From positions 1-36,765 of the forward strand of contig JAIRMC010000117.1 in the NCBI GenBank assembly GCA_031258965.1: a stretch of 36,765 bases of DNA, given 5' to 3'. Numbering within the stretch: position 1 is the first letter of the stretch; each line of letters starts with the position of its first letter. This DNA comes from Azoarcus sp. Its GTDB lineage: Bacteria > Pseudomonadota > Gammaproteobacteria > Burkholderiales > Rhodocyclaceae. Below the pieces are notes generated by a model. That model saw only the letters and a program-made list of their open reading frames with translations. It searched no databases and had not been told where the DNA came from. The position numbers were made by a program, and so were the translations under genes. Of this stretch, positions 8,347 through 34,419 are shown in pieces.

Positions 8347-9561
8347 TCAGCCCGCTGGCAGCAGGCAGGCGAGATGTTCGACGATCTGGCGCGCGATGAA
8401 TGTTTTGGGCGCTCTTGGCAAGGGGTGCCGCCCCTCGTCGTCGTAGATGACAACCGTGTTGTCGTCCCCGCACAGACCGTCGACGAGCAGGTTGCCAACC
8501 AGCATGGGCAGGCGTTTGGCGCGGCGCTTGCCTTCGGCGTAGGTGTCCAGATCCTGGCTTTCGGCGGCGAAGCCGACGCAGAACGGCGCATCGGGCCGCG
8601 CCGCAACTTCGGCGAGGATGTCCGGATTGGGAACGAGTTCGAGTTGCATGGGTGCGCCTGATTTCTTGAGCTTGTGCCACGCTGTTTCCGCCGGGCGGTA
8701 ATCGGCGACCGCCGCTACGGCAATGAACACATCCGCTCCTGGCAAGGCCGCCAACACTTCGTCGCGCATCCGTAGGGCGCTGGCCGCCTCGACCCGCCGC
8801 ACTCCAACGGGCGCGGGCAAGACCGTCGGCCCGCTCACCAGCACGACTTCGGCGCCACTGCGCACACAGGCCGCCGCAATCGCGTAGCCCATCTTGCCGG
8901 AACTGGAATTGGTGATGCCACGCACCGGGTCGATGGCCTCAAAGGTCGGCCCGGCGGTCATCACCACCTTGCGCCCGGCCAGCCGCTTCGGGGTGAAGAA
9001 GGCCAGCAGCGCCTCGCACAGCGCCTCGGGTTCCAGCATCCGTCCGGGGCCGGTTTCGCCGCACGCCTGCCCGCCCTCGTCCGGGCCGAGGAGGATGGCG
9101 CCGTCACCCCTGAGCGTCGCCACGTTGCGTTGCGTGGCCGGATTTTCCCACATCTGTCGGTTCATCGCCGGGGCGATAAAGAGCGGACAGTCACGCGCCA
9201 GACACAGCGCAGAGAGCAGATCGCCCGCCAGACCGTTGGCAAGGCGGGCAATGATGCCGGCGCTCGCGGGCGCGACGAGAACAGCATCGGCCCCGCGCAC
9301 GAGGGCGATATGCGGAATGCCGTTTTCCGCCCCCCCGTCCCAAAAGGACGTCCACACGCGATTCCCCGACAGGGCGTGGAAAGTGAGCGCGGAGACGAAA
9401 CGCGAACCCGCCTCGGTCAGCGCCACATGGACATCCGCCCCCAATCGCCTCAGTTCGCGCGTGAGCGCGGCGGCCTTGTACGCCGCGACGCCGCCGCTCA
9501 CACCAAGCACGATTTTTCGCCCGTGCAAACTTTCGATGACGCCTATATAATCCCCCATCAT
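8347..9561 (-). CDS. coaBC: Bifunctional phosphopantothenoylcysteine decarboxylase/synthetase
   Basis: A 404-residue fusion enzyme that joins cysteine to 4'-phosphopantothenate (CoaB, CTP-dependent) and decarboxylates the product (CoaC, FMN-dependent) in coenzyme A synthesis. The N-terminal CoaC half has [13 protein letters not shown] at the flavin site, the [12 protein letters not shown] motif and the [10 protein letters not shown] loop with the active-site cysteine. The C-terminal CoaB half has [14 protein letters not shown] and the WHKLKKSG lysine segment. Two adjacent ATG codons (9561 and 9558) are possible starts; a GAGGGA lies just upstream. Only about 20 bases separate it from divergent radC. 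Confidence 0.97.
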
Positions 9562-24015: not shown

Positions 24016-24687
24016 ATGGATCTCGTACTTTTCGACCTCGACAATACCTTGCTTGCCGGCGATTCCGATGTTGCGTGGACGCAATTCCTGATCGAAGAAG
24101 GCGCGCTCGACGAAGCCACGCAAAAAACGCGCAATCTCGTTTTCTATGAGCAGTACAAAGCGGGCACACTGGATATCCACGAATTCCTCGATTTCCAGCT
24201 CGCATCGTTGACGCGCCATCCGCGCGAGCGGCTGGATGCCTGGCGCCGCGCTTATATGGAACGGCACATCCGCCCGATGATCCGCCCCGCCGCCCGCGCG
24301 CTGGTCGAAGGGCATCTGCGGCGCGGCGCGCTCGCCGCTGTGGTGACGGCCACGAACAGCTTTGTCACTTGGCCCATCGCACGCGAATTCGGCATCGCCC
24401 ATCTCGTCGCCACGGTGCCCGCACAAGAAAACGGCGTATTCACGGGCAAGCCGCGCGGCATTCCCGCCTTCCAGGCGGGCAAGGTGGCCCGCGTCGAAGC
24501 TTGGCTGGAGTCGCTCGGGCTGAACTTCGCCAGTTTCGGGCAAAGCTGGTTCTACAGCGACTCGCATAACGACCTGCCGCTGTTGCAACGGGTCACGAAG
24601 CCCGTAGCGGTCGATCCGGACGAGGTACTGGCCGAATATGCGCTGGCGCGGGAATGGGAGATACTGCTATTGCGCGAAATGCCCTGA
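24016..24687 (+). CDS. HAD-family (IB, SerB-like) phosphatase
   Basis: A 223-residue haloacid dehalogenase-superfamily hydrolase of subfamily IB. Motif I is LFDLDNTLL with nucleophile Asp7 and acid/base Asp9. Motif II is the Thr in VVTATNSFV, and motif IV is YSDSHNDLPLL with the metal-binding aspartates. The helical cap between motifs I and II (about residues 15-90) fits phosphoserine-phosphatase-like enzymes. The substrate cannot be told; relatives act on phosphoserine, histidinol phosphate or similar compounds. It follows hda by 26 bases and is probably co-transcribed with it. In many betaproteobacteria pcnB comes next, but here the zinc-ribbon genes do. Confidence 0.9.
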   Translation: MDLVLFDLDNTLLAGDSDVAWTQFLIEEGALDEATQKTRNLVFYEQYKAGTLDIHEFLDFQLASLTRHPRERLDAWRRAYMERHIRPMIRPAARALVEGHLRRGALAAVVTATNSFVTWPIAREFGIAHLVATVPAQENGVFTGKPRGIPAFQAGKVARVEAWLESLGLNFASFGQSWFYSDSHNDLPLLQRVTKPVAVDPDEVLAEYALAREWEILLLREMP

Positions 24688-24796: not shown

Positions 24797-25522
24797 ATGT
24801 TTTGCACTTCCTGCGGAGCCAGTCTGGGGGCATGGCCCAACAAATCTTGCCCCCGCTGCGGCGCGCCGCTACGGTCGGCGGACGAAATGCTGGAGTCCGG
24901 CACTCCCGGAACCATGCCGGATCAGCCCCCTGCTTCCATACCTTCTTCTTCCGCGCCGCCGTCCGCGCATTACCGGAAAAACATCAACCCCGTCTGGCTG
25001 GCCATCGGGGGTGTTTTCGTGTTGATCGTGGGCGGACTGTGGTGGGGATTGGGCATGGGCGATCCGCCCGTCATCAACCCCAAAGTTGTTAACACCAAAG
25101 TTGTTAACACCACGCCGCCCACAGAACCGACACATGAGCGGACGCCCGACGTTCCGCCGCTCGTGGGGCAGACGCCCGACGATCCGCCGCTCGTGACGCC
25201 GCCGCCCGACAGTCCGCCGCTCGTGGGGCAGACGCCCGACGATCCGCCGCTCGTGATGCCGCCAACCGACGATCCGCCACTCGTGAGGCCGCCGACCAAC
25301 GATCCGCCGCTCGTGAGGCAACCGACCAACGATCCGCCACCGCGGCCACCCAGGACACGGCGACCGAAGCCCCTGCCCATCCCACCGGAATGGCTGGGCG
25401 TCATGCGCGAGGAACTCGCCAGGTGCGAAAACTTTTTTTGCCACTCGACTGTGCAGCGCACATATTGCGACGGTTACTGGAACCGGATACCCGAATGTAA
25501 AAGACGCGGCAACGGGCTATAG
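24797..25522 (+). CDS. Zinc-ribbon membrane protein with proline-rich repeats and C-terminal Cys4 motif
   Basis: A 241-residue protein of unknown function with four parts. Residues 3-21 form a zinc ribbon (Cys3, Cys6, Cys18, Cys21; C-x2-C-x11-C-x2-C). A single hydrophobic segment spans about 66-87 (VWLAIGGVFVLIVGGLWWGL). Residues 116-185 are seven 10-residue repeats around PDDPPLV. The C-terminal 45 residues hold CENFFC...YC...PEC with Cys210, 215, 224 and 234 (C-x4-C-x8-C-x9-C). The lack of a signal peptide and the internal membrane segment suggest a cytoplasmic zinc ribbon and a periplasmic tail; this is inference. The next gene encodes a paralogue with the same ends and a different linker. 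It starts about 110 bases after the HAD gene. Confidence 0.85.
   Translation: MFCTSCGASLGAWPNKSCPRCGAPLRSADEMLESGTPGTMPDQPPASIPSSSAPPSAHYRKNINPVWLAIGGVFVLIVGGLWWGLGMGDPPVINPKVVNTKVVNTTPPTEPTHERTPDVPPLVGQTPDDPPLVTPPPDSPPLVGQTPDDPPLVMPPTDDPPLVRPPTNDPPLVRQPTNDPPPRPPRTRRPKPLPIPPEWLGVMREELARCENFFCHSTVQRTYCDGYWNRIPECKRRGNGL
25082..25111 (+). repeat. Two direct 15-base repeats inside the zinc-ribbon gene
   Basis: AAAGTTGTTAACACC occurs twice in tandem (25082-25096 and 25097-25111), encoding KVVNTKVVNT just after the membrane segment. It is AT-rich compared with its surroundings and looks like a recent slippage duplication. Confidence 0.8.
25142..25351 (+). repeat. Seven tandem 30-base repeats in the proline-rich linker
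   Basis: Seven in-frame 30-base units encode TPDVPPLVGQ, TPDDPPLVTP, PPDSPPLVGQ, TPDDPPLVMP, PTDDPPLVRP, PTNDPPLVRQ and PTNDPPPRPP. The units share a CCGCCGCTCGTG core in the DNA. Units 1 and 3, and 2 and 4, are most alike, which hints at duplication of a two-unit block. Copy number may vary between strains. Confidence 0.92.
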
Positions 25523-25612
25523 CGGCGGCAAGGCCATGATCGACACAGCCCGCCGCTTTCGGCGACAATGACGGGCAATACAATGAATTTTTTTGACAGG
25601 TAACTCAAATCC

Positions 25613-27145
25613 ATGTTCTGCGATGCCTGCGGAGCCGACCTGGGAAATCGACCCATCAAGTTCTGTCCGCAATGCGGCGCGTTGCTGCAAGCCGCGCCCC
25701 CCGAGCCGGAAAAAGCCGCCGCGTCCGAAACTGCCGGCGCGCCGCTTCCGGAATCGCCGCCGCCTGCCGGGACGGCGCCCGGAGCCTTGACCGAAACGCG
25801 CATTTCGCCACTTTCGTCGATCACCCTCGATGCCATTCCGGCCTTCGATTTTGCGCCGCCGATAATGGCCCCCGCCTTTGAGGAGGATAAACCGCCAGCA
25901 GCAGCAGTGGAAACCGCACCCGGTCCGGATGCCGGGCCGTCCGGACCGGCGCAAGCGCCGCCGGACGTTCCTCCCGAGCCGGAAGAAACCGCCGCCGACG
26001 CCCGCCCGGAACCCGCCGAACCCACGACTGTTCTTCTGGAAGAAACGGCATCCGCCCTTCCCGTCCGGGAGACCGTCGAGACCGCCGCCGGGATCGAACC
26101 CGCGCCGCCAACCGTCATTCCGGACTTCGAGCCATTCCTTGCGGAAAGCGCGCCCGCCACGCCAGAAACTTCCCCGTCCAACATCGCGCCCGGCGGTAGC
26201 GCCGTCCCGCCGGGATGGGAAGAAAGATATGCCCCCGAAATCTCCACGATGACCTCCCTGGCGGAATGGGGACGCATCGAACCCACGATGTCGGGCACAA
26301 GGGCTTTTCCGCTACCCGTCGAGCCGCCGCCCCGGGCAAACGGTTCCATGTTCGCCGTAATCGGCGCCGCCGCCGTCCTGGTATTGGCGCTATCCGGCAT
26401 CTGGTGGTTTTCCGACGGGACGGCCAGCGCGCCCGAAGCTGTCCCCAAGGATACGCCGGAGCTATCTTCCGGAATGTCCTTGCCCCTGGCGGTCGGGACG
26501 ACAAACGAAACGCCGCCCGCCGAAACGCTGGCGACCCCGGCGCAAGAGACGGGCGAGCCGCTCCCGGCGTTCGACCCCGCTTCCAGCCTGGAACCGGATG
26601 CGCCATTGCTGGTCATCCCCCCCTTGCCCGCGAACCAACAGCCGGGCAAGCACAACCGCATCGACAACGTCATCGAACCGCTTCCCGATATCCCTCTTGC
26701 TTCCGAAGCTTCCGCCTCCGTGCCCCTGCCCGCCGCCGCTTCCCGCACGCGGTCTTCCCCCGCGCCATCCTCCTCCACCGTTTCCGCCGGATCATCGCCC
26801 CCTGTCAGGCCGCCTTCTCTTTCCCGCCCGCCCATCATTGCGCCCATTCCCCTGCCTCTGCCGCCCCTGCCGAGGCGGGACGCGGATATCGCCGTCTCCA
26901 AGCGGGAACCCATGCGCGCCGTCGTGCCCGAACGAAATCCGCCGCCCGCCCTCACATCGCCGTCCATCGATGAGCCTGGCCGGGAACGCCACGCCCGCCC
27001 GCGGCAGGATTCCCCGTCCTGGCGCAGCCATTTGCGCCAGGAACTGTCGAACTGCGAAGATTTTTTCTGCCGCGAACGGGCGCGCAGACAATATTGTTCG
27101 GAACGCTGGAAAACGCTGCCGGAATGCCGGGGCGCGTCGCTCTGA
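25613..27145 (+). CDS. Large zinc-ribbon membrane protein with disordered linkers and C-terminal Cys4 motif
   Basis: A 510-residue paralogue of the preceding protein, function unknown. The zinc ribbon is Cys3, Cys6, Cys18, Cys21, with the same C-x2-C-x11-C-x2-C spacing. A 220-residue Pro/Glu/Ala-rich acidic region follows, then one hydrophobic segment at about 246-266 (MFAVIGAAAVLVLALSGIWW). A second Pro/Ser-rich region leads to the C-terminal motif NCEDFFC...YC...PEC with Cys481, 486, 495 and 505, again C-x4-C-x8-C-x9-C. Conserved ends with unlike middles suggest that the ends carry the function and the linkers set the reach. A 631-codon open frame on the opposite strand is a GC-driven shadow; the matching zinc ribbons settle the strand. 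An AGGTAA precedes the ATG. Confidence 0.85.
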   Translation: MFCDACGADLGNRPIKFCPQCGALLQAAPPEPEKAAASETAGAPLPESPPPAGTAPGALTETRISPLSSITLDAIPAFDFAPPIMAPAFEEDKPPAAAVETAPGPDAGPSGPAQAPPDVPPEPEETAADARPEPAEPTTVLLEETASALPVRETVETAAGIEPAPPTVIPDFEPFLAESAPATPETSPSNIAPGGSAVPPGWEERYAPEISTMTSLAEWGRIEPTMSGTRAFPLPVEPPPRANGSMFAVIGAAAVLVLALSGIWWFSDGTASAPEAVPKDTPELSSGMSLPLAVGTTNETPPAETLATPAQETGEPLPAFDPASSLEPDAPLLVIPPLPANQQPGKHNRIDNVIEPLPDIPLASEASASVPLPAAASRTRSSPAPSSSTVSAGSSPPVRPPSLSRPPIIAPIPLPLPPLPRRDADIAVSKREPMRAVVPERNPPPALTSPSIDEPGRERHARPRQDSPSWRSHLRQELSNCEDFFCRERARRQYCSERWKTLPECRGASL

Positions 27146-27179
27146 AAAAGCCAAGGAATCGCAATCACTGGAGAACTGC

Positions 27180-28328
27180 ATGAGTCCAAACCAGCCTGTA
27201 CCGGGAGCCAGCTATGTCGGCCTGCTGCGGGCCGTCGAAGCATTGCGCAACGAAAAAGCCCTGTTCGTCCTTCTCGCCACTGGGCTGTTGCCGGGGGCGT
27301 CGATATTTCTCCTCTCCAGCCCGCGCGACTCCGGCGTTCCCGCATTGGCCGTCCTGTTTGTCGTCGCATCCCTGTTGCTGCTGCCGGTCGGCATATCCGC
27401 CGCCGGTCTGCTGCTCATGGATCAGGCCAGGGGGCAGACGCCGCGCCCGCTCGGCAGGGCCGTGGCCGGCGGGCTTTTCGCCGCCCTGCGGCTTATCGTC
27501 ATTTCCCTGGCGGGCGTTGCCGCAATGGCGGTTTTTTTCCTTTTTCTCGGCATACTGCTTTTCGCATGCAAAATTCCTTTTCTCGGCCCTGTGTTTTACG
27601 CCGTGTTTTTCCCGATCCTGACGGTGGCGGCAGGGCTGTTGTTCCTGGGGCTTTTCGCCGTCCAGTCCATGGCCGGGCCTGCCATCTGGAATGGCGCGAC
27701 CGTAAGCGAAACCCTGTCCATGCTCGCGCGGATCGCCGCCCGCCGGGGGGGGGAACTGCTGACGAGCCTTTTCCTGCTCGGCATGCTCGTAGTCCTGGCC
27801 GAATTCGTGATCTTCAGTATCGTCGCAACTGGCTGCCAGATCGTACTGGGCATGTCGGTATCCATATTGGGAAGCGGTTCAGGCGCGACGGATTTCTTCG
27901 GACATTTCCTTGGATTTACCCGTGCCATCGCGGCCAGCGAATACATGTACGCGACCGCTTTCGGTTTCATTCTCGTCATGATGCTGGCAATGACCGCCAT
28001 CATGGCCCTAGTCTTGATGGGCCTGAACCTGATCTACCTGCGGATTACCGGCGATCCGCCCCCGGCTGGCACGGATTCGCCGAGCATGCCACCGCCAATT
28101 CCCGGGAAAGCGCAAAAGGCGCCGCCGCCGCCTGAAGCGCGCGCCGCAATGTCCGCCGCCGTCGCCCCCGCGGACACGTCCATCGCCAATGACGTTCCGG
28201 ACATCCTTGCGGGGCTTTTCACCGAAACTCCGCCCGTACCGCCAGTTTCGACCTGCCCCCATTGCCAGGCGGCCATACAGCCCGGCGATCGTTTCTGCGG
28301 CGAATGCGGTCGCAAAATCCAGGGCTGA
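27180..28328 (+). CDS. Polytopic membrane protein with C-terminal zinc ribbon
   Basis: A 382-residue protein of unknown function. About six hydrophobic segments lie between residues 25 and 290, for example LLATGLLPGASIFLLSS, LAVLFVVASLLLLPVGISAA and LIVISLAGVAAMAVFFLFLG. A proline/alanine-rich stretch then leads to a C-terminal zinc ribbon with Cys359, Cys362, Cys373 and Cys376 (C-x2-C-x10-C-x2-C; CPHCQAAIQPGDRFCGECG). The ATG at 27180 lies 34 bases after the upstream stop; longer in-frame starts would overlap the previous gene. I infer that the three zinc-ribbon proteins form one membrane assembly, with this one as the membrane core. No known family name comes to mind for the membrane part. 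Confidence 0.85.
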   Translation: MSPNQPVPGASYVGLLRAVEALRNEKALFVLLATGLLPGASIFLLSSPRDSGVPALAVLFVVASLLLLPVGISAAGLLLMDQARGQTPRPLGRAVAGGLFAALRLIVISLAGVAAMAVFFLFLGILLFACKIPFLGPVFYAVFFPILTVAAGLLFLGLFAVQSMAGPAIWNGATVSETLSMLARIAARRGGELLTSLFLLGMLVVLAEFVIFSIVATGCQIVLGMSVSILGSGSGATDFFGHFLGFTRAIAASEYMYATAFGFILVMMLAMTAIMALVLMGLNLIYLRITGDPPPAGTDSPSMPPPIPGKAQKAPPPPEARAAMSAAVAPADTSIANDVPDILAGLFTETPPVPPVSTCPHCQAAIQPGDRFCGECGRKIQG

Positions 28329-28404: not shown

Positions 28405-29655
28405 ATGTTCTCCGCGCAAAATACCCTCGCCAAGACCGATTCCGAATTATGGGCCGCCGTGCAGGCGGAAAACCGCCGCCAGGAAGATCACATCGAACTG
28501 ATCGCCTCCGAAAACTACGTCTCGCCCGCAGTGCTGGAAGCCCAGGGGTCGCAGCTCACCAATAAATACGCCGAAGGTTATCCCGGCAAGCGTTACTACG
28601 GCGGCTGCGAGCATGTCGATGTCGTCGAACAACTAGCCATCGACCGCCTGAAGGCGCTTTTCGGCGCGGAAGCCGCCAATGTGCAGCCCAATTCAGGGTC
28701 GCAGGCCAACCAGGCCGTATTGATGGCTTTCGCCAAGCCGGGCGACGCCATCCTGGGCATGAACCTCGCCGAAGGCGGCCACCTCACCCACGGCATGCCG
28801 CTCAATATGTCGGGCAAGTGGTTCAACGCCATCGCCTATGGCCTCGACGCCAAGGAGGCCATCGACTACGCAGCAATGGAGCGCCTTGCCCGCGAACACA
28901 AGCCGAAGATCATCGTCGCCGGAGCGTCCGCCTACTCCCTGCGCATCGACTGGGCGCGTTTCGCCAGGGTGGCGAAGGAAACAGGCGCGATCTTCTGGGT
29001 GGACATGGCGCATTACGCGGGGCTGATCGCCGCCGGGTTCTATCCCAACCCCGTGCAGCATGCCGATGTTGTGACGACCACGACCCACAAGACCCTGCGC
29101 GGCCCGCGCGGCGGCGCGATCCTGATGAAAGCTGAACACGAGAAGGCGATCAATTCGGCGATCTTCCCCGGCTTGCAGGGCGGCCCGTTGATGCACGTCA
29201 TCGCGGGCAAGGCGGTGTGCTTCAAGGAAGCGGCCTCGCCCGCGTTCCGGCGCTATCAGGAACTGGTTATCAATAATGCCCGCGTAATGGCGCGGGTGCT
29301 TGGCGAGGAGCGCGGCCTGCGCATCGTCTCCGGACGCACGGAAAGCCATGTGTTCCTCGTCGACCTGCGCGCCAAGAAAATCACTGGCAAGGCCGCCGAG
29401 GTGGCGCTCGGACAGGCCCATATCACCATCAACAAGAATACGATTCCCAACGACCCGGAAAAGCCTTTCATCACTTCGGGCATCCGCATCGGCTCCCCGG
29501 CGATCACCACGCGCGGCTTTACCGAGATCGAGGCGGAAAAAACCGCCCATCTCATCGCCGATGTACTGGACGCGCCCGAGAGCCAGGCAACGCTCGGGAA
29601 AGTACGTAACGAAGTGAAGGCGCTTTGCGCGCGCTTCCCGGTATACGGCAAATAA
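28405..29655 (+). CDS. glyA: Serine hydroxymethyltransferase
   Basis: A PLP enzyme that interconverts serine and glycine and charges tetrahydrofolate with one-carbon units. The 416 residues match the bacterial enzyme. [18 protein letters not shown] and [18 protein letters not shown] are N-terminal signatures. The PLP lysine is Lys229 in [14 protein letters not shown], the same position as in E. coli. The C-terminal segment [14 protein letters not shown] is conserved. It has its own 76-base upstream gap after the zinc-ribbon trio, in which I see no clear promoter. Its folate partner folE2 lies elsewhere in the window. It ends convergent to the T6SS cluster. Confidence 0.98.
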
Positions 29656-30375: not shown

Positions 30376-31104
30376 TTATCCCACCAAGATTCTGCCGACC
30401 TGCTCGTCGAGCAGTTTCCAATAGACGCCGAAAATGATCGCCAGCACGCTCGCCAACAGCGCAATGTAGGCCCACAGTGGCAATTCATAACGCATATAGT
30501 TCTGAAAGCGATGCGGCAATTTCCAGTTTGGCGCAAATCCCGGCGCGTCGCCGCGCACACGTTGAATTTCCTGTCCCACGCGATGGACGAGATAGCTGAG
30601 CTTTTCCGGGCCTTCGAGCAGGTATTTGCCATGGAAACCGAGCAGCAGGCAGGTATGGAACACTTCGAGTGCTTCGATGTTGCGGGCCGGATTGTTGCGC
30701 ATCATCTCCAGCCGGTCAAAAAAACGTTCTCCGGCGAAATTCTCGCCGAACAGGCGCAATTGCAGCGGCATCCGCGCCCATTCATCACGGAACGAAAAAT
30801 CGGGCGAGAGCATGATTTCGTCCATCAGCGCACAAAAGGCGTATTTCGCCTGTTCAATCTGTTCGACATCCTTGCCAAAATTGCGCGCCTGCTTTTCGTA
30901 GCTTGTGAAAAACAGATCGATATGCCGGTTCAATTGCTCGCAGGATTTGGGCAAATTGCCATCGCGCAGCAAAAACAACAAGTAAATCCCGTCTTCCAGC
31001 AAATCGCGCAATGTCGGCGCAATAGGCGTTTCTGCCGCAATGGCGGGAGTTTTTTTAATCTCGACAGACGGGAGACTATTCATAGTAGCGGTCGTAGCAG
31101 CCAT
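30376..31104 (-). CDS. tssL: T6SS inner-membrane protein TssL (DotU family)
   Basis: A 242-residue inner-membrane protein of the T6SS trans-envelope complex, where it binds TssM and TssK. The cytoplasmic DotU-like domain includes LRDLLEDGIYLLFLLRDG, YAFCALMDEIMLS, LFGENFAGERFFDRLE and VFHTCLLLGFHGKY. One C-terminal membrane segment (about 210-231, LWAYIALLASVLAIIFGVYW) anchors it. There is no peptidoglycan-binding OmpA-like extension, so it is the short form. The ATG at 31104 has an AGGAA upstream; a TTG at 31131 overlapping the tssK stop is the alternative. tssM does not follow, although it often does. Confidence 0.93.
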   Translation of the reverse strand: MAATTATMNSLPSVEIKKTPAIAAETPIAPTLRDLLEDGIYLLFLLRDGNLPKSCEQLNRHIDLFFTSYEKQARNFGKDVEQIEQAKYAFCALMDEIMLSPDFSFRDEWARMPLQLRLFGENFAGERFFDRLEMMRNNPARNIEALEVFHTCLLLGFHGKYLLEGPEKLSYLVHRVGQEIQRVRGDAPGFAPNWKLPHRFQNYMRYELPLWAYIALLASVLAIIFGVYWKLLDEQVGRILVG

Positions 31105-31127
31105 AATCAAAGGGTTCCTAATGAAAA

Positions 31128-32483
31128 TCAACGAAAGACGCCGATCAATTCAATCTCAAGGTTGGCGAGTGACTTCGGCGTATAAATGCAGATAGAACGC
31201 GACTGCAACATCCGTTTATAGATGTCGCCGCGCGCTTCCAACGCGAAATAATGATTGCCCGCATGAACCGGCAGGGCCGTTGGCGTCTGCTGCATAGGCT
31301 GGAGATTGACGCCCGGCATGGCGGAATGGAGGATTTTATCTACGTCGTCGGGCGAACCGACCTTATATTGGGCAGGCACTTCCTCGATGATTCGCGCCAC
31401 GGGCATATCGCCGCGTACCGACAGATAGAAATCGGCATTTTCGATCAGGTTGGTACTCTCCAGACGGCCGATGTGGAACGAGGGTTTGGGCATGGTGAGC
31501 GGGATAATGACGTAGCGTGTGGAAACCACCGTATCCAGCAACTCACGAACCATTTTGTCGAGCTTGGGAAAGGTTTTAGCAAGTTCATCGTGGCAATATG
31601 CAGGGAGATCGGACAGTTTGTAAATTGTGGAGAACGTTAGCAATTCGCCGCAAAGCCGGGCGAGCGCGAGATAGAGTTCTTCGGGATGCAGCGGTTCGGC
31701 CTTAAGCAGATGATTGAATAGCGCAAAATTGCTATTGACCGTGTGCAAGAGCCAGAATGAAGCAATATCGGAAGAACTGTACCCCATCACGTTCCTGGCG
31801 CGCTCGCGTTGTGTACCAGACAAGGTCACACTTTTGGCCATCAAGATGTCGAGCAGCCTTTGGATCGCACCGCGCAGTGGGGGGGAGGCACTGACCGTTA
31901 CCATCGGCGGTATATAGTCTTCGACCACCCGCCATTGCCCTGTGGCATCCTTTGCCAGCCTGGCGATGGGCACGGAATCATAGCCGTCGCGGTTTTCCTC
32001 TTCCAGCATCAAACGCACGTCGAGTTCTAGCACGGTGATATCCGTCTCAATGGCATTGGTATATAAATCAGTCGCTTTCCTGTGCGCGTTGCGATAGCGC
32101 GCGGGGCGGGCCGACGGGACGCTATCATTGCCGCTGACAGTGTTGCCGCCATAAGTATTGAGGTGGGGGAGGCAAGCATAAAGGGTGGTTTCGGCATTGA
32201 CCTGGGGCACATCCCTCAAATTGCGCGACAGGGGTACGGGTTCTTTGTCGGGCGCATAAAAACGGCTGCCGTCCCTGAACACGACATCCAGTGCCTCAAG
32301 GCGGATATTCCCGGTGTAGAGCGCCCCGGTGTCGAGTTCAATCCGGGCCAAGCCCCAGGCATGGCGCTGGGCGGATTGCAGTGTCTCGGCGATGGCATTA
32401 TCGATAAACAATGCCTGTTGCTGAAAATGCTGTGGGCGTAAAAACAACCCCCCACCCCACAAAACACGACGAGATTTAGACAT
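31128..32483 (-). CDS. tssK: T6SS baseplate protein TssK
   Basis: A 451-residue cytoplasmic protein, normal for TssK, that links the baseplate to the membrane complex. The N-terminus VLWGGGLFLRPQHFQQQALF is the family hallmark. Further features are LEALDVVFRDGSRFYAPD in the N-terminal domain and the C-terminal segment near FALEARGDIYKRMLQSRSIC. An AAGGAA ribosome binding site precedes the ATG. The gene starts 19 bases after tssJ and is followed 23 bases later by tssL, the core tssJKL order. Confidence 0.96.
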   Translation of the reverse strand: MSKSRRVLWGGGLFLRPQHFQQQALFIDNAIAETLQSAQRHAWGLARIELDTGALYTGNIRLEALDVVFRDGSRFYAPDKEPVPLSRNLRDVPQVNAETTLYACLPHLNTYGGNTVSGNDSVPSARPARYRNAHRKATDLYTNAIETDITVLELDVRLMLEEENRDGYDSVPIARLAKDATGQWRVVEDYIPPMVTVSASPPLRGAIQRLLDILMAKSVTLSGTQRERARNVMGYSSSDIASFWLLHTVNSNFALFNHLLKAEPLHPEELYLALARLCGELLTFSTIYKLSDLPAYCHDELAKTFPKLDKMVRELLDTVVSTRYVIIPLTMPKPSFHIGRLESTNLIENADFYLSVRGDMPVARIIEEVPAQYKVGSPDDVDKILHSAMPGVNLQPMQQTPTALPVHAGNHYFALEARGDIYKRMLQSRSICIYTPKSLANLEIELIGVFR

Positions 32484-32502
32484 ACAAGAATTCCTTTTTC
32501 AG

Positions 32503-33120
32503 TTAGCGCAGGAAAGCCCCTGCACATTCAGGGAGATTACCCTGCGTTTGACCCAAAAGCGGTTCAGGTTCGGGTTGAACTAATGTGAAATAGCAATCTT
32601 TTGCCGTGAAGTTCAGCCCTTCATTGCGCACCGTCCGCGCATCGACCAGGAAGCGCCAGCCATGCGTATCTGGCGAGCGGAAAAACGCAACACCTCCGAT
32701 GTACCGGGTCTCTGGCAAGAGCTTATCCGTGAATGCCTGCGTTGTGCCGGGAATCAGCACCACTTCATTGGTAGCCACCCATTCGCTGGGGAACAACTCG
32801 GCTTCGTTCGGGCTTCGCGCCACAGCATCGAAAGTCACGCGCGAAAATCCGTTGATGCCTTTCAACTGGTACAGACGCACCACCACCGACAAAGGCTTGC
32901 CGCTGGCGTCCCGATTGACGAGCGCGTCCGCCGAACCCTTTATTGCATATTCTTCCGGCGCGCGCACGGGCGGCGGTTCATTGACGCGCTGGATTTCGGC
33001 CACGTTGGCCTGAAGCGCCAACGCTTCGGGAATCGGCGGTTTTTTGCTGAAAAACGAACATCCCCCCGCGAACACCGCCAGCAGTACAGCGCCGCAAAGG
33101 CGGCCAGATATATTCACCAT
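32503..33120 (-). CDS. tssJ: T6SS outer-membrane lipoprotein TssJ
   Basis: A 205-residue lipoprotein that anchors the T6SS membrane complex in the outer membrane. The signal peptide ends in the lipobox FAGGC with Cys21 as the lipidated residue. The mature part has VVVRLYQLKGINGFSRVTFD, typical of the TssJ beta-sandwich, and LLPETRYIGGVAFFRSPDTHGW. A periplasmic linker of about 30 residues rich in proline precedes it. A GAGG lies upstream of the ATG. It is separated from tssA by about 170 bases that hold repeat copy B. Confidence 0.92.
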   Translation of the reverse strand: MVNISGRLCGAVLLAVFAGGCSFFSKKPPIPEALALQANVAEIQRVNEPPPVRAPEEYAIKGSADALVNRDASGKPLSVVVRLYQLKGINGFSRVTFDAVARSPNEAELFPSEWVATNEVVLIPGTTQAFTDKLLPETRYIGGVAFFRSPDTHGWRFLVDARTVRNEGLNFTAKDCYFTLVQPEPEPLLGQTQGNLPECAGAFLR

Positions 33121-33158
33121 GATTGCTTACACCTCATCGTTGTGGAACACTGATCAAG

Positions 33159-33232
33159 CGTCATTTTCGAAGCCCGAAGGGCCGTGGCGCGCCATACGGC
33201 CCGTGGATTGCCACGCCCCGCTCGCAATGACG
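33159..33232. repeat. Palindromic intergenic repeat, copy B
   Basis: Begins CGTCATTTTCGAAGC and ends CGTGGATTGCCACG, CCCCGCTCGCAATGACG. The right half matches copies C and D closely; the left arm has drifted. It fills part of the tssA-tssJ gap. Confidence 0.75.
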
Positions 33233-33291
33233 ATCAACTTGATCGACGTTTCCTTGTTTCTCACGTCCAAAGATCGCCGCCAGCCCGCGAA

Positions 33292-34419
33292 TCATTTATT
33301 CGCGGTTCCTGTCGGCATGTCGATTTTCGCATTGAGCAGTTCCTGCAATTGTTCCAGCGTGGCCTTGTCCTTGATGACATCCGACAGCCATTTCTCGAAG
33401 GGCATCTCTGCCCATTGGACGGCGCGCTCGATAAGCAGGGCCACGGGGCTGTGCGGCTCATGGGAGCGAAACCAGTATGCGACCGTGCGCAACTGTCGAA
33501 TGGCATCGTCGCGCCTGCCAAGGGTCGGGGCGGCTTCTCCGGAAGGCGTTGACAATAGCTTCGTCGAAGGGGCGGACAGCCTGGACGGCGCGCCCTCGCC
33601 GCTGGAACTAGCGGCGGACACCACCGCGCCGCCGCTGAATTCCCCGAAAAACCGCTGTGCCGCCTCGCCGCAATCATTGAGTGCCCCGCACGTTCTGCCA
33701 AAGCTAGGCGCATCAGAACCAAAACGTGCATTGAGCATGTGGACAAGATCATCGCAGGCCGCGCGCGCAATCGCAATTTCGGCGACAAGCTCCTGGAACC
33801 AGATCACACCGGAATCACGCGCGCTTTTATCGAAAGCGTCGCCCGAGAGCGCCCCCGCCGCCAGCGCAGTCTCATAGGCATCGGCATCACGCCGTTTCAG
33901 GTTTTCGGTTTCGCGCGACGCCTGCCACTGATACCAGTCATAACCGCCATATTGCGGCGACACCAACGGTAATTCACGCAAAACCCGCTCTAATTGAATA
34001 TCCAGCCATTCGAGTTTGCTTATGCGTTCATCGAGTTCTCCAGCCGAATCGGGATGGGGATAAAGCGTGTCCCAAAAACGATCCAGCAACCCGGCAATCA
34101 CGCGAAAACCGAATGCGACACCCGCATAACCATCATGATGCGTCAGTGCTTCGACATACCACGTCGCCAACTGCAAATCCTTGCTGCGCGAGGAAAGCGC
34201 CGCTTCGCATAACTGGATCACCTTGCCCCATTCAGCGGTTTTCAGCACGGTGAGCCATTCGCCCTGCGGCAAGTTTGGATCGTCCGCGCGCCGCGCTTCC
34301 TTGATGTGGCTGAATACCGGCAGGAATTGCAGATTTTCACCGCTCGGGTGTTCATCCGAAACCGGTCTCAGCAAATCCTCCAGCTTTTCCCGCAATGCCT
34401 GATCCTGGTTTTTATCCAT
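33292..34419 (-). CDS. tssA: T6SS assembly protein TssA (ImpA N-terminal domain)
   Basis: A 375-residue cytoplasmic protein that primes tail-tube and sheath polymerisation. The N-terminal ImpA domain is clear: LLRPVSDEHPSGENL, EWGKVIQLCEAALSSRSKDL, LATWYVEALTHHDGYAGVA and GLLDRFWDTLYPHPD. The C-terminal part includes a Ser/Ala-rich linker (about residues 265-300) and ends with helical segments (REHPHSPVALL-type: SHEPHSPVALLIERAVQWAE), resembling the short TssA class. A GAGG lies 11 bases before the ATG. It is bounded by gaps holding repeats on both sides. Confidence 0.92.
   Translation of the reverse strand: MDKNQDQALREKLEDLLRPVSDEHPSGENLQFLPVFSHIKEARRADDPNLPQGEWLTVLKTAEWGKVIQLCEAALSSRSKDLQLATWYVEALTHHDGYAGVAFGFRVIAGLLDRFWDTLYPHPDSAGELDERISKLEWLDIQLERVLRELPLVSPQYGGYDWYQWQASRETENLKRRDADAYETALAAGALSGDAFDKSARDSGVIWFQELVAEIAIARAACDDLVHMLNARFGSDAPSFGRTCGALNDCGEAAQRFFGEFSGGAVVSAASSSGEGAPSRLSAPSTKLLSTPSGEAAPTLGRRDDAIRQLRTVAYWFRSHEPHSPVALLIERAVQWAEMPFEKWLSDVIKDKATLEQLQELLNAKIDMPTGTANK

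What the first reader, a model, noticed from the sequence alone, without database searches (positions are those of the whole stretch)
24797..28328. Three adjacent zinc-ribbon membrane proteins: candidate undescribed membrane system
Seen: three consecutive same-strand genes with gaps of 90 and 34 bases each encode a C-x2-C...C-x2-C zinc ribbon plus membrane segments. Two have the ribbon at the N-terminus followed by one membrane segment; the third has about six membrane segments and the ribbon at the C-terminus. Inference: all three ribbons face the cytoplasm and the proline-rich tails reach into the periplasm, so the set could be an envelope-sensing, anchoring or export complex. I know of no named system with this layout.
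Basis: partly seen in the sequence, partly recalled or inferred. Interest (0 to 1): 0.8.

Follow-up and report, generated by a model that had tools for sequence, protein, structure and literature searches.

The report
Conserved zinc-ribbon membrane gene module
Three neighbouring genes encode membrane proteins that each carry a small zinc-binding knob, and similar sets recur side by side in related bacteria, so they probably form a real but unstudied cell-envelope machine whose job is still unknown.

Summary
In detail: genes A (24797-25522), B (25613-27145) and C (27180-28328) each encode a zinc ribbon plus membrane segments, and they are the only three ORFs over the Zn_Ribbon_1 cut-off in this genome.

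The set is conserved. C occurs in 14 of 21 genus genomes, each time beside B or a B fragment. In 8 genus loci it, or B alone, lies between a histidinol-phosphatase gene and pcnB, which adjoin directly in 2 of 4 relatives examined outside the genus. Outside the genus C belongs to an uncharacterised family (15 of 300 order genomes, own included). A ribbon-TM partner lies nearby in 16 of 16 scanned loci whose C has its ribbon, and in 0 of 4 whose C lacks it. Some loci add OmpA-like or glycine-zipper-like lipoproteins and further ribbon proteins.

Best reading: an envelope-spanning complex, a six-TM hub plus periplasm-crossing arms, coupled by cytoplasmic ribbons. The gene module is well supported; topology, complex and function are inferred.

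The parts
24797..25522 (+). gene A: N-terminal zinc ribbon, one TM, Pro-rich tail (25% Pro after the TM), C-terminal 4-Cys domain; 241 aa
24803..24859 (+). zinc ribbon of A (C-x2-C-x11-C-x2-C)
24983..25039 (+). TM segment of A (residues 63-81)
   Evidence: hydropathy
25143..25338 (+). 30-bp x 6.5 tandem repeat in A's Pro-rich tail
25373..25519 (+). C-terminal 4-Cys domain of A
25613..27145 (+). gene B: paralogue of A with a long stretch before the TM, Pro-rich tail (18% Pro after the TM), 4-Cys domain; 510 aa
25619..25675 (+). zinc ribbon of B
26345..26401 (+). TM segment of B (residues 245-263)
26615..26656 (+). conserved tail motif of B, IPxLPxNQxxGxHN (L, P, Q, H, N invariant in the 15 aligned B proteins)
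26999..27142 (+). C-terminal 4-Cys domain of B (AlphaFold2 mean pLDDT 81.1, pTM 0.55, two helices)
27180..28328 (+). gene C: six-TM protein with C-terminal zinc ribbon, 382 aa
27258..28025 (+). six-TM core of C
28254..28307 (+). zinc ribbon of C, over the Pfam Zn_Ribbon_1 cut-off
24016..24687 (+). upstream neighbour: HAD-family histidinol-phosphatase, left border of the insertion site in relatives; not part of the module

Best explanation
A, B and C are one module of an undescribed envelope complex found mainly in the window's order (Burkholderiales in GTDB, recalled). C is a six-TM hub in the inner membrane with its ribbon in the cytoplasm. A and B are single-pass arms: the N-terminal ribbon is cytoplasmic, one helix crosses the inner membrane, a flexible proline-rich linker crosses the periplasm, and a small disulfide-stapled two-helix domain sits at the far end and contacts peptidoglycan or an outer-membrane partner. 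The cytoplasmic ribbons hold hub and arms together, by pairing with each other or through a shared cytoplasmic partner. Likely role: tethering the inner membrane to the wall or outer membrane, or sensing its state. Shown here: gene order, domains, conservation, block insertion, ribbon/partner co-occurrence. Inferred: topology, zinc binding, disulfides, physical complex, contact with wall or outer membrane, role.
For: In the genus B or a B fragment is beside C in 14 of 14 C-positive genomes. HAD-A-B-C-pcnB is seen in 5 loci, HAD-B-C-pcnB in 1 and HAD-B-pcnB in 2, while HAD and pcnB are 53-54 bases apart in 2 of the 4 other-genus relatives examined (B of L056). Outside the genus a second ribbon+TM ORF lies near C in 16 of 16 scanned loci where C has its ribbon and in 0 of 4 where it lacks it. 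The partner carries the same 4-Cys tail in G301 (leave-one-out E 4.1e-7 among 1487 ORFs) and, more weakly, in G070 (E 3.2e-4). An OmpA-domain lipoprotein adjoins in L108 (PF00691 E 1.5e-25) and look-alikes in L102, L104, L107 and L111. C loops carry 17 K+R on the N-terminal side of the membrane against 3 on the other. The own genome has DsbB. dN/dS between window and G018 is 0.46-0.48 for all three genes.
Against: No interaction, localisation or phenotype data. As a single sequence B matches nothing in the 39 other-genus genomes, so outside the genus the partner link rests on architecture and position, plus the tail in two loci. The lipoproteins seen elsewhere are not beside the window module. 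A is absent beside B in several genus members; G013, G015 and G016 keep B, and G014 a fragment, without a C match. In L045 and L048 neither flank of the insertion site was found. B of G003 and G013 lacks the 4-Cys tail. Tail ends differ across the order. The 4-Cys domain also caps TM proteins without ribbons. The C model has no significant structural match.
Confidence: 0.45

Rival explanations
1. C is a small-molecule or lipid transporter, and the ribbon proteins are regulatory or metal-sensing subunits that switch it.
For: C has a confidently predicted helical core (mean pLDDT 80.7); among Foldseek matches the sulfate permease CysZ has the highest probability of the 50 listed (0.87; TM-score 0.45 of target); ribbonless C homologues exist, two of them beside what I read as an efflux operon (L058, L100).
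Against: The CysZ match has E 0.66 and 200 alignment columns; no transporter family hits C or its relatives in Pfam or C in NCBIfam; no conserved substrate gene seen beside it.
Confidence: 0.2
2. A and B are wall or stress sensors like the ribbon-TM proteins TcaA/YvbJ of Gram-positives, signalling through the ribbons to a cytoplasmic partner, with C as membrane signal carrier.
For: Same order of parts (ribbon, TM, extracytoplasmic tail); a single-ribbon neighbour of C in L105 gives a weak TcaA match over residues 3-83 (15.9 bits).
Against: That score is far below the family cut-off of 550 bits; A and B give no TcaA match at E<=1; no regulator gene adjoins the module in the window.
Confidence: 0.2
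3. The arms are TonB- or GltJ-like energy or motility transducers reaching an outer-membrane partner.
For: Single TM plus Pro-rich arm; weak GltJ match of the L105 partner (19.9 bits); SjdR of Anabaena (cytosolic N-terminal domain, TM, Pro-rich periplasmic domain; PMC8262864, passages read) is an arm of similar shape that acts on intercellular septa.
Against: No TonB family in the Pfam scan of A or B; the GltJ score is far below its cut-off of 450 bits and lies over the Pro-rich part; no motor genes adjoin in the window.
Confidence: 0.1
4. The three genes are unrelated neighbours, or an accessory of the type VI secretion genes downstream.
For: TssL, TssK, TssJ and TssA genes lie at 30.4-34.4 kb on the other strand.
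Against: No TssK in 26 loci of up to 12 kb (22 of the genus, own included; 4 of other genera); B or its fragment adjoins C in 14 of 14 C-positive genus genomes.
Confidence: 0.05

Closest known systems
TcaA / YvbJ-type ribbon-TM proteins (NCBIfam NF053815 for TcaA; YvbJ recalled)
   Same: N-terminal zinc ribbon followed by one TM and an extracytoplasmic part (layout of TcaA recalled)
   Different: A and B have Pro-rich tails with a 4-Cys end and no TcaA match; a six-TM ribbon protein is encoded alongside
GltJ (Myxococcus gliding; NF033761) and SjdR (Anabaena, PMC8262864, passages read)
   Same: cytoplasmic N-terminal part, TM, Pro-rich periplasmic arm (ribbon of GltJ recalled, not from a call)
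   Different: no TonB-like end and no GltJ match of A or B; the L105 partner's GltJ score is far below cut-off
TonB-type energy transducers
   Same: one TM, Pro-rich periplasm-spanning linker, small C-terminal domain
   Different: cytoplasmic zinc ribbon; no TonB domain found
OmpA-like lipoproteins (YiaD, YfiB, Pal)
   Same: encoded beside C in some other genera (tested in L108), suggesting a wall or outer-membrane contact
   Different: not adjacent in the window
CysZ sulfate permease
   Same: weak fold resemblance of C's helical core
   Different: E 0.66, TM-score 0.45 of target
SHOCT domain (PMC3581485, passages read)
   Same: short C-terminal domain shared by many architectures, eight cases with a double zinc ribbon
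   Different: SHOCT lacks conserved Cys; the domain here has four

Membership tests
TcaA (NF053815) | score over the curated cut-off (550 bits) | tested here: not met
   A, B and C: no hit at E<=1; only the L105 neighbour, 15.9 bits
TcaA (NF053815) | N-terminal ribbon then one TM (recalled layout) | tested here: met
   A and B
GltJ (NF033761) | score over cut-off (450 bits) | tested here: not met
   A, B and C no hit at E<=1; L105 partner 19.9 bits
TonB | C-terminal TonB domain | tested here: not met
   no TonB family in the Pfam scan of A or B at E<=1 or of 21 tail domains
CysZ | same fold | tested here: inconclusive
   Foldseek prob 0.87 but E 0.66, TM 0.45 of target
Type VI secretion accessory | conserved linkage to tss genes | tested here: not met
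   no TssK in 26 loci of up to 12 kb
Zinc ribbon (Zn_Ribbon_1) | two CxxC knuckles and score over cut-off | tested here: met
   C 27.4 bits; A and B below it in the protein scan (17.5, 18.7) and over it only with neighbouring matches in frame added
Zinc ribbon (Zn_Ribbon_1) | binds zinc | not testable with these tools
   needs metal analysis

The most novel reading that the evidence does not exclude
A new class of trans-envelope complex in which several inner-membrane proteins are held together by cytoplasmic zinc ribbons, with interchangeable periplasmic arm ends (4-Cys hairpin, TPR-like, short helix) and lineage-specific lipoprotein partners: a modular tether or sensor shared across the order and matching no named system in my searches.
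Probability: 0.3. Interest if true: 0.8.

Novelty: new variant of a known kind. Interest (0 to 1): 0.55.

Why it matters
If true, it adds an unstudied envelope complex spread over many genera of one large order of Gram-negative bacteria, with a named example in Mycetohabitans rhizoxinica (a bacterium of the fungus Rhizopus), and two protein families without a curated model (the six-TM ribbon protein and the 4-Cys tail domain). The ribbon/partner correlation gives a direct, testable prediction: the ribbons are the glue or switch between subunits.

Tried and rejected
Rejected: chance cluster; T6SS accessory; membership of TcaA, GltJ or TonB; phage origin (no PHROGs hit at E<=0.01 for A, B, C). 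Led nowhere: PDB sequence search with the tail domain (0 hits) and with C (7 hits at E<=1, best E 1.7e-4 over the ribbon); tRNA and Rfam scans of the window (none); promoter/terminator scan (2 promoter-like, 3 terminator-like sites against shuffle means of 0.7 and 5.9). Ten paper searches listed no paper on such a set; five listed nothing, and apart from passages of two papers I saw listings only.

Results against my reading: the genus-only tail profile did not find G301 or G070 at E<=0.001 and scored their partners E 0.11 and 0.035 among 1487 ORFs; the wider profile, which includes G301's tail, did not list G070. Two genus genomes keep a ribboned B without C (G013, G016); in a third (G015) no ribbon is seen upstream of B in three frames. 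Dropped before counting: weak C matches in G057 (L060, used as a control) and G773 (L130); two further Mycetohabitans plasmid hits not scanned; L074 is the contig of L059 and not counted twice. In L119 the partner was missed in my first filter and found; the proline-tail partner of L106 was found with a looser TM threshold, then applied to all loci and controls. The 7-TM ribbon family was sought in 300 order genomes: 3 hits, two beside C, one fragment at a contig end.
Full report
Observation. A and B start with a C-x2-C-x11-C-x2-C ribbon and have one TM segment followed by a proline-rich tail (25% and 18% Pro); C has six TM segments and ends with a ribbon. In the protein scan only C's ribbon passes the Pfam Zn_Ribbon_1 cut-off. 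In the six-frame search of the own genome with that family the A, B and C frames are the only ones marked over the cut-off, A and B only with neighbouring matches added; four other places stay below. In the window 3 of 147 ORFs of at least 100 aa have ribbon plus TM, against 0 of 377 in 14 control stretches, or 1 of 377 with looser settings.

A and B are paralogues. Both end in a short domain with four cysteines, roughly LRxELxxCxxFFCxxxxxxxYCxxxWxxxPEC; in 21 genus tails the four Cys and one Glu are invariant. It has no convincing Pfam match (7 families at E<=1, best E 2.1e-4 to a PHD-type finger model in 4 of 21 members) and no PDB match at E<=5. AlphaFold2 gives mean pLDDT 81 and two helices. 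With a wider profile it occurs in 13 of 300 order genomes, own included. Of the 14 loci outside the own genome that I inspected, 13 printed an ORF, each with a hydrophobic segment before a C-terminal four-Cys domain (L143 printed none); only one of the 13 (L135, G301) has ribbons. Most B proteins share the tail motif IPxLPxNQxxGxHN: L, P, Q, H and N are invariant in the 15 aligned of 18 B-like proteins (two fragments and L047 were left out). A's tail holds a 30-bp tandem repeat.

Where it comes from. Contigs of its genus relatives have the same lengths as records titled Azoarcus sp. or Betaproteobacteria bacterium metagenome-assembled genomes. That these are termite-gut bacteria, and that GTDB puts them in Burkholderiales, is recalled or inferred.

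Conservation in the genus. Of 21 genus genomes (own included) C is found in 14 and B-like sequence in 17; a further B-like ORF in G003 was found by inspection. All 14 C-positive genomes have B or a B fragment beside C. A is complete beside B in 7 (own, G001, G008, G009, G010, G011, G018), a tail at a contig edge in 2 (G012, G019), undecidable in G002, not seen beside B in G003, G004, G007 and G020. G013, G015 and G016 have B, and G014 a fragment, without a C match. HAD-A-B-C-pcnB is seen in L041, L043, L044, L050 and L052; HAD-B-C-pcnB in L056; HAD-B-pcnB in L047 and L055; in L042, L046, L049, L051 and L053 only the pcnB side was matched; in L045 and L048 neither side. Four other-genus relatives were examined: in G023 and G030 the HAD and pcnB matches are 54 and 53 bases apart, the empty site; in G021 and G025 no HAD match lies in the fetched stretch. 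In the window C is followed by glyA, and pcnB lies on contig C20. dN/dS between window and G018 is 0.46 (A), 0.48 (B), 0.46 (C).

Beyond the genus. As a single sequence B has no match in the 39 other-genus genomes. C matches 15 of 300 order genomes (own included; 13 of 135 genera), 4 of 321 in the class sample, two of them outside the order, and 3 of 299 in the phylum sample, one weak. A named example is a zinc ribbon domain-containing protein of Mycetohabitans rhizoxinica HKI 454 plasmid pBRH01. I scanned 20 loci with a C homologue outside the genus. In the 16 where C ends in a ribbon (L059, L073, L101-L112, L119, L127) another ribbon+TM ORF lies nearby; in the four where it does not (L058, L100, L128, L129) none does. 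Fisher p is 3.3e-4 for 14 against 4 (without L119 and L073) and 0.0018 by genus, 13 against 3; these ignore deeper relatedness, and L058 is cut by a contig end. The main partner usually has two or three ribbons, one TM and a Pro/Ala-rich tail (12 loci tabulated). Its end varies: a 4-Cys domain in L101 and L106, what I read as a TPR-like stretch in L103, L105, L109 and L110, a short helix or other end elsewhere. Extra members, by my reading of the translations unless a test is named: an OmpA-like lipoprotein in L102, L104, L107, L108 and L111 (tested in L108); a glycine-zipper-like lipoprotein in L105, L109, L110 and L119 (tested in L105, 23.9 bits, just below the cut-off of 25); a single-ribbon protein with a longer tail in L102, L104-L108 and L110; a 7-TM ribbon protein in L059, L073, L105 and L110.

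How it most likely works. C's charges (17 K+R on the N-terminal side, 3 on the other) put both its ends, and so its ribbon, in the cytoplasm; for A and B the charge signal is weak. A reducing cytoplasm suits ribbons and an oxidising periplasm suits the 4-Cys tails; DsbB is present. Linkers of about 114 (A) and 204 (B) residues could cross the periplasm at about 0.31 nm per residue for an extended Pro-rich chain (recalled). I therefore propose an envelope-spanning complex, hub C plus arms A and B, coupled by the ribbons, as a tether or sensor. The ribbon/partner correlation is the strongest hint that the ribbons matter for the partnership. Physical association and function are inference.

Known systems. 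TcaA, GltJ and TonB share parts of the layout but fail their tests. The C model has no significant structural match: best E 0.27, with CysZ a weak one. Paper searches in the open-access library listed no description of such a set; that library misses most subscription papers, so absence from print is not established. From PMC8262864 and PMC3581485 I read passages only.

Noticed in passing
window 30379-34419: Type VI secretion genes TssL, TssK, TssJ, TssA on the minus strand; TssK not found in 26 related loci.
   Followed up: partly
window 28405-29655: glyA follows C here, whereas pcnB follows the module in many genus loci; pcnB of this genome is on another contig, so the window's right side appears rearranged.
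   Followed up: partly
L131-L134, L136-L141, L144, L077: The 4-Cys C-terminal domain also caps TM or signal-anchored proteins without ribbons in other genera of the order, several beginning MSWR.
   Followed up: partly
L058 4910-5926; L100 5984-6994: Ribbonless C homologues in one genus, each beside what I read as MarR-like, outer-membrane-factor-like, membrane-fusion-like and MFS-like genes.
   Followed up: no
L119 7976-9226: In M. rhizoxinica pBRH01 most of the ribbon-TM partner ORF is not in the PLSDB gene table, which lists only 8975-9226 there.
   Followed up: no
L051 2-2047: Genome G009 carries repeated A-like genes and tail-domain fragments before B, suggesting tandem duplication.
   Followed up: no
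G016:C87, G019:C13, G020:C278: Further short A/B-like matches on other contigs of three genus genomes, possible extra copies of the arm gene.
   Followed up: no
L177: A fragment of the 7-TM ribbon family with internal stops at a contig end in G315, a genome not among the C hits.
   Followed up: no
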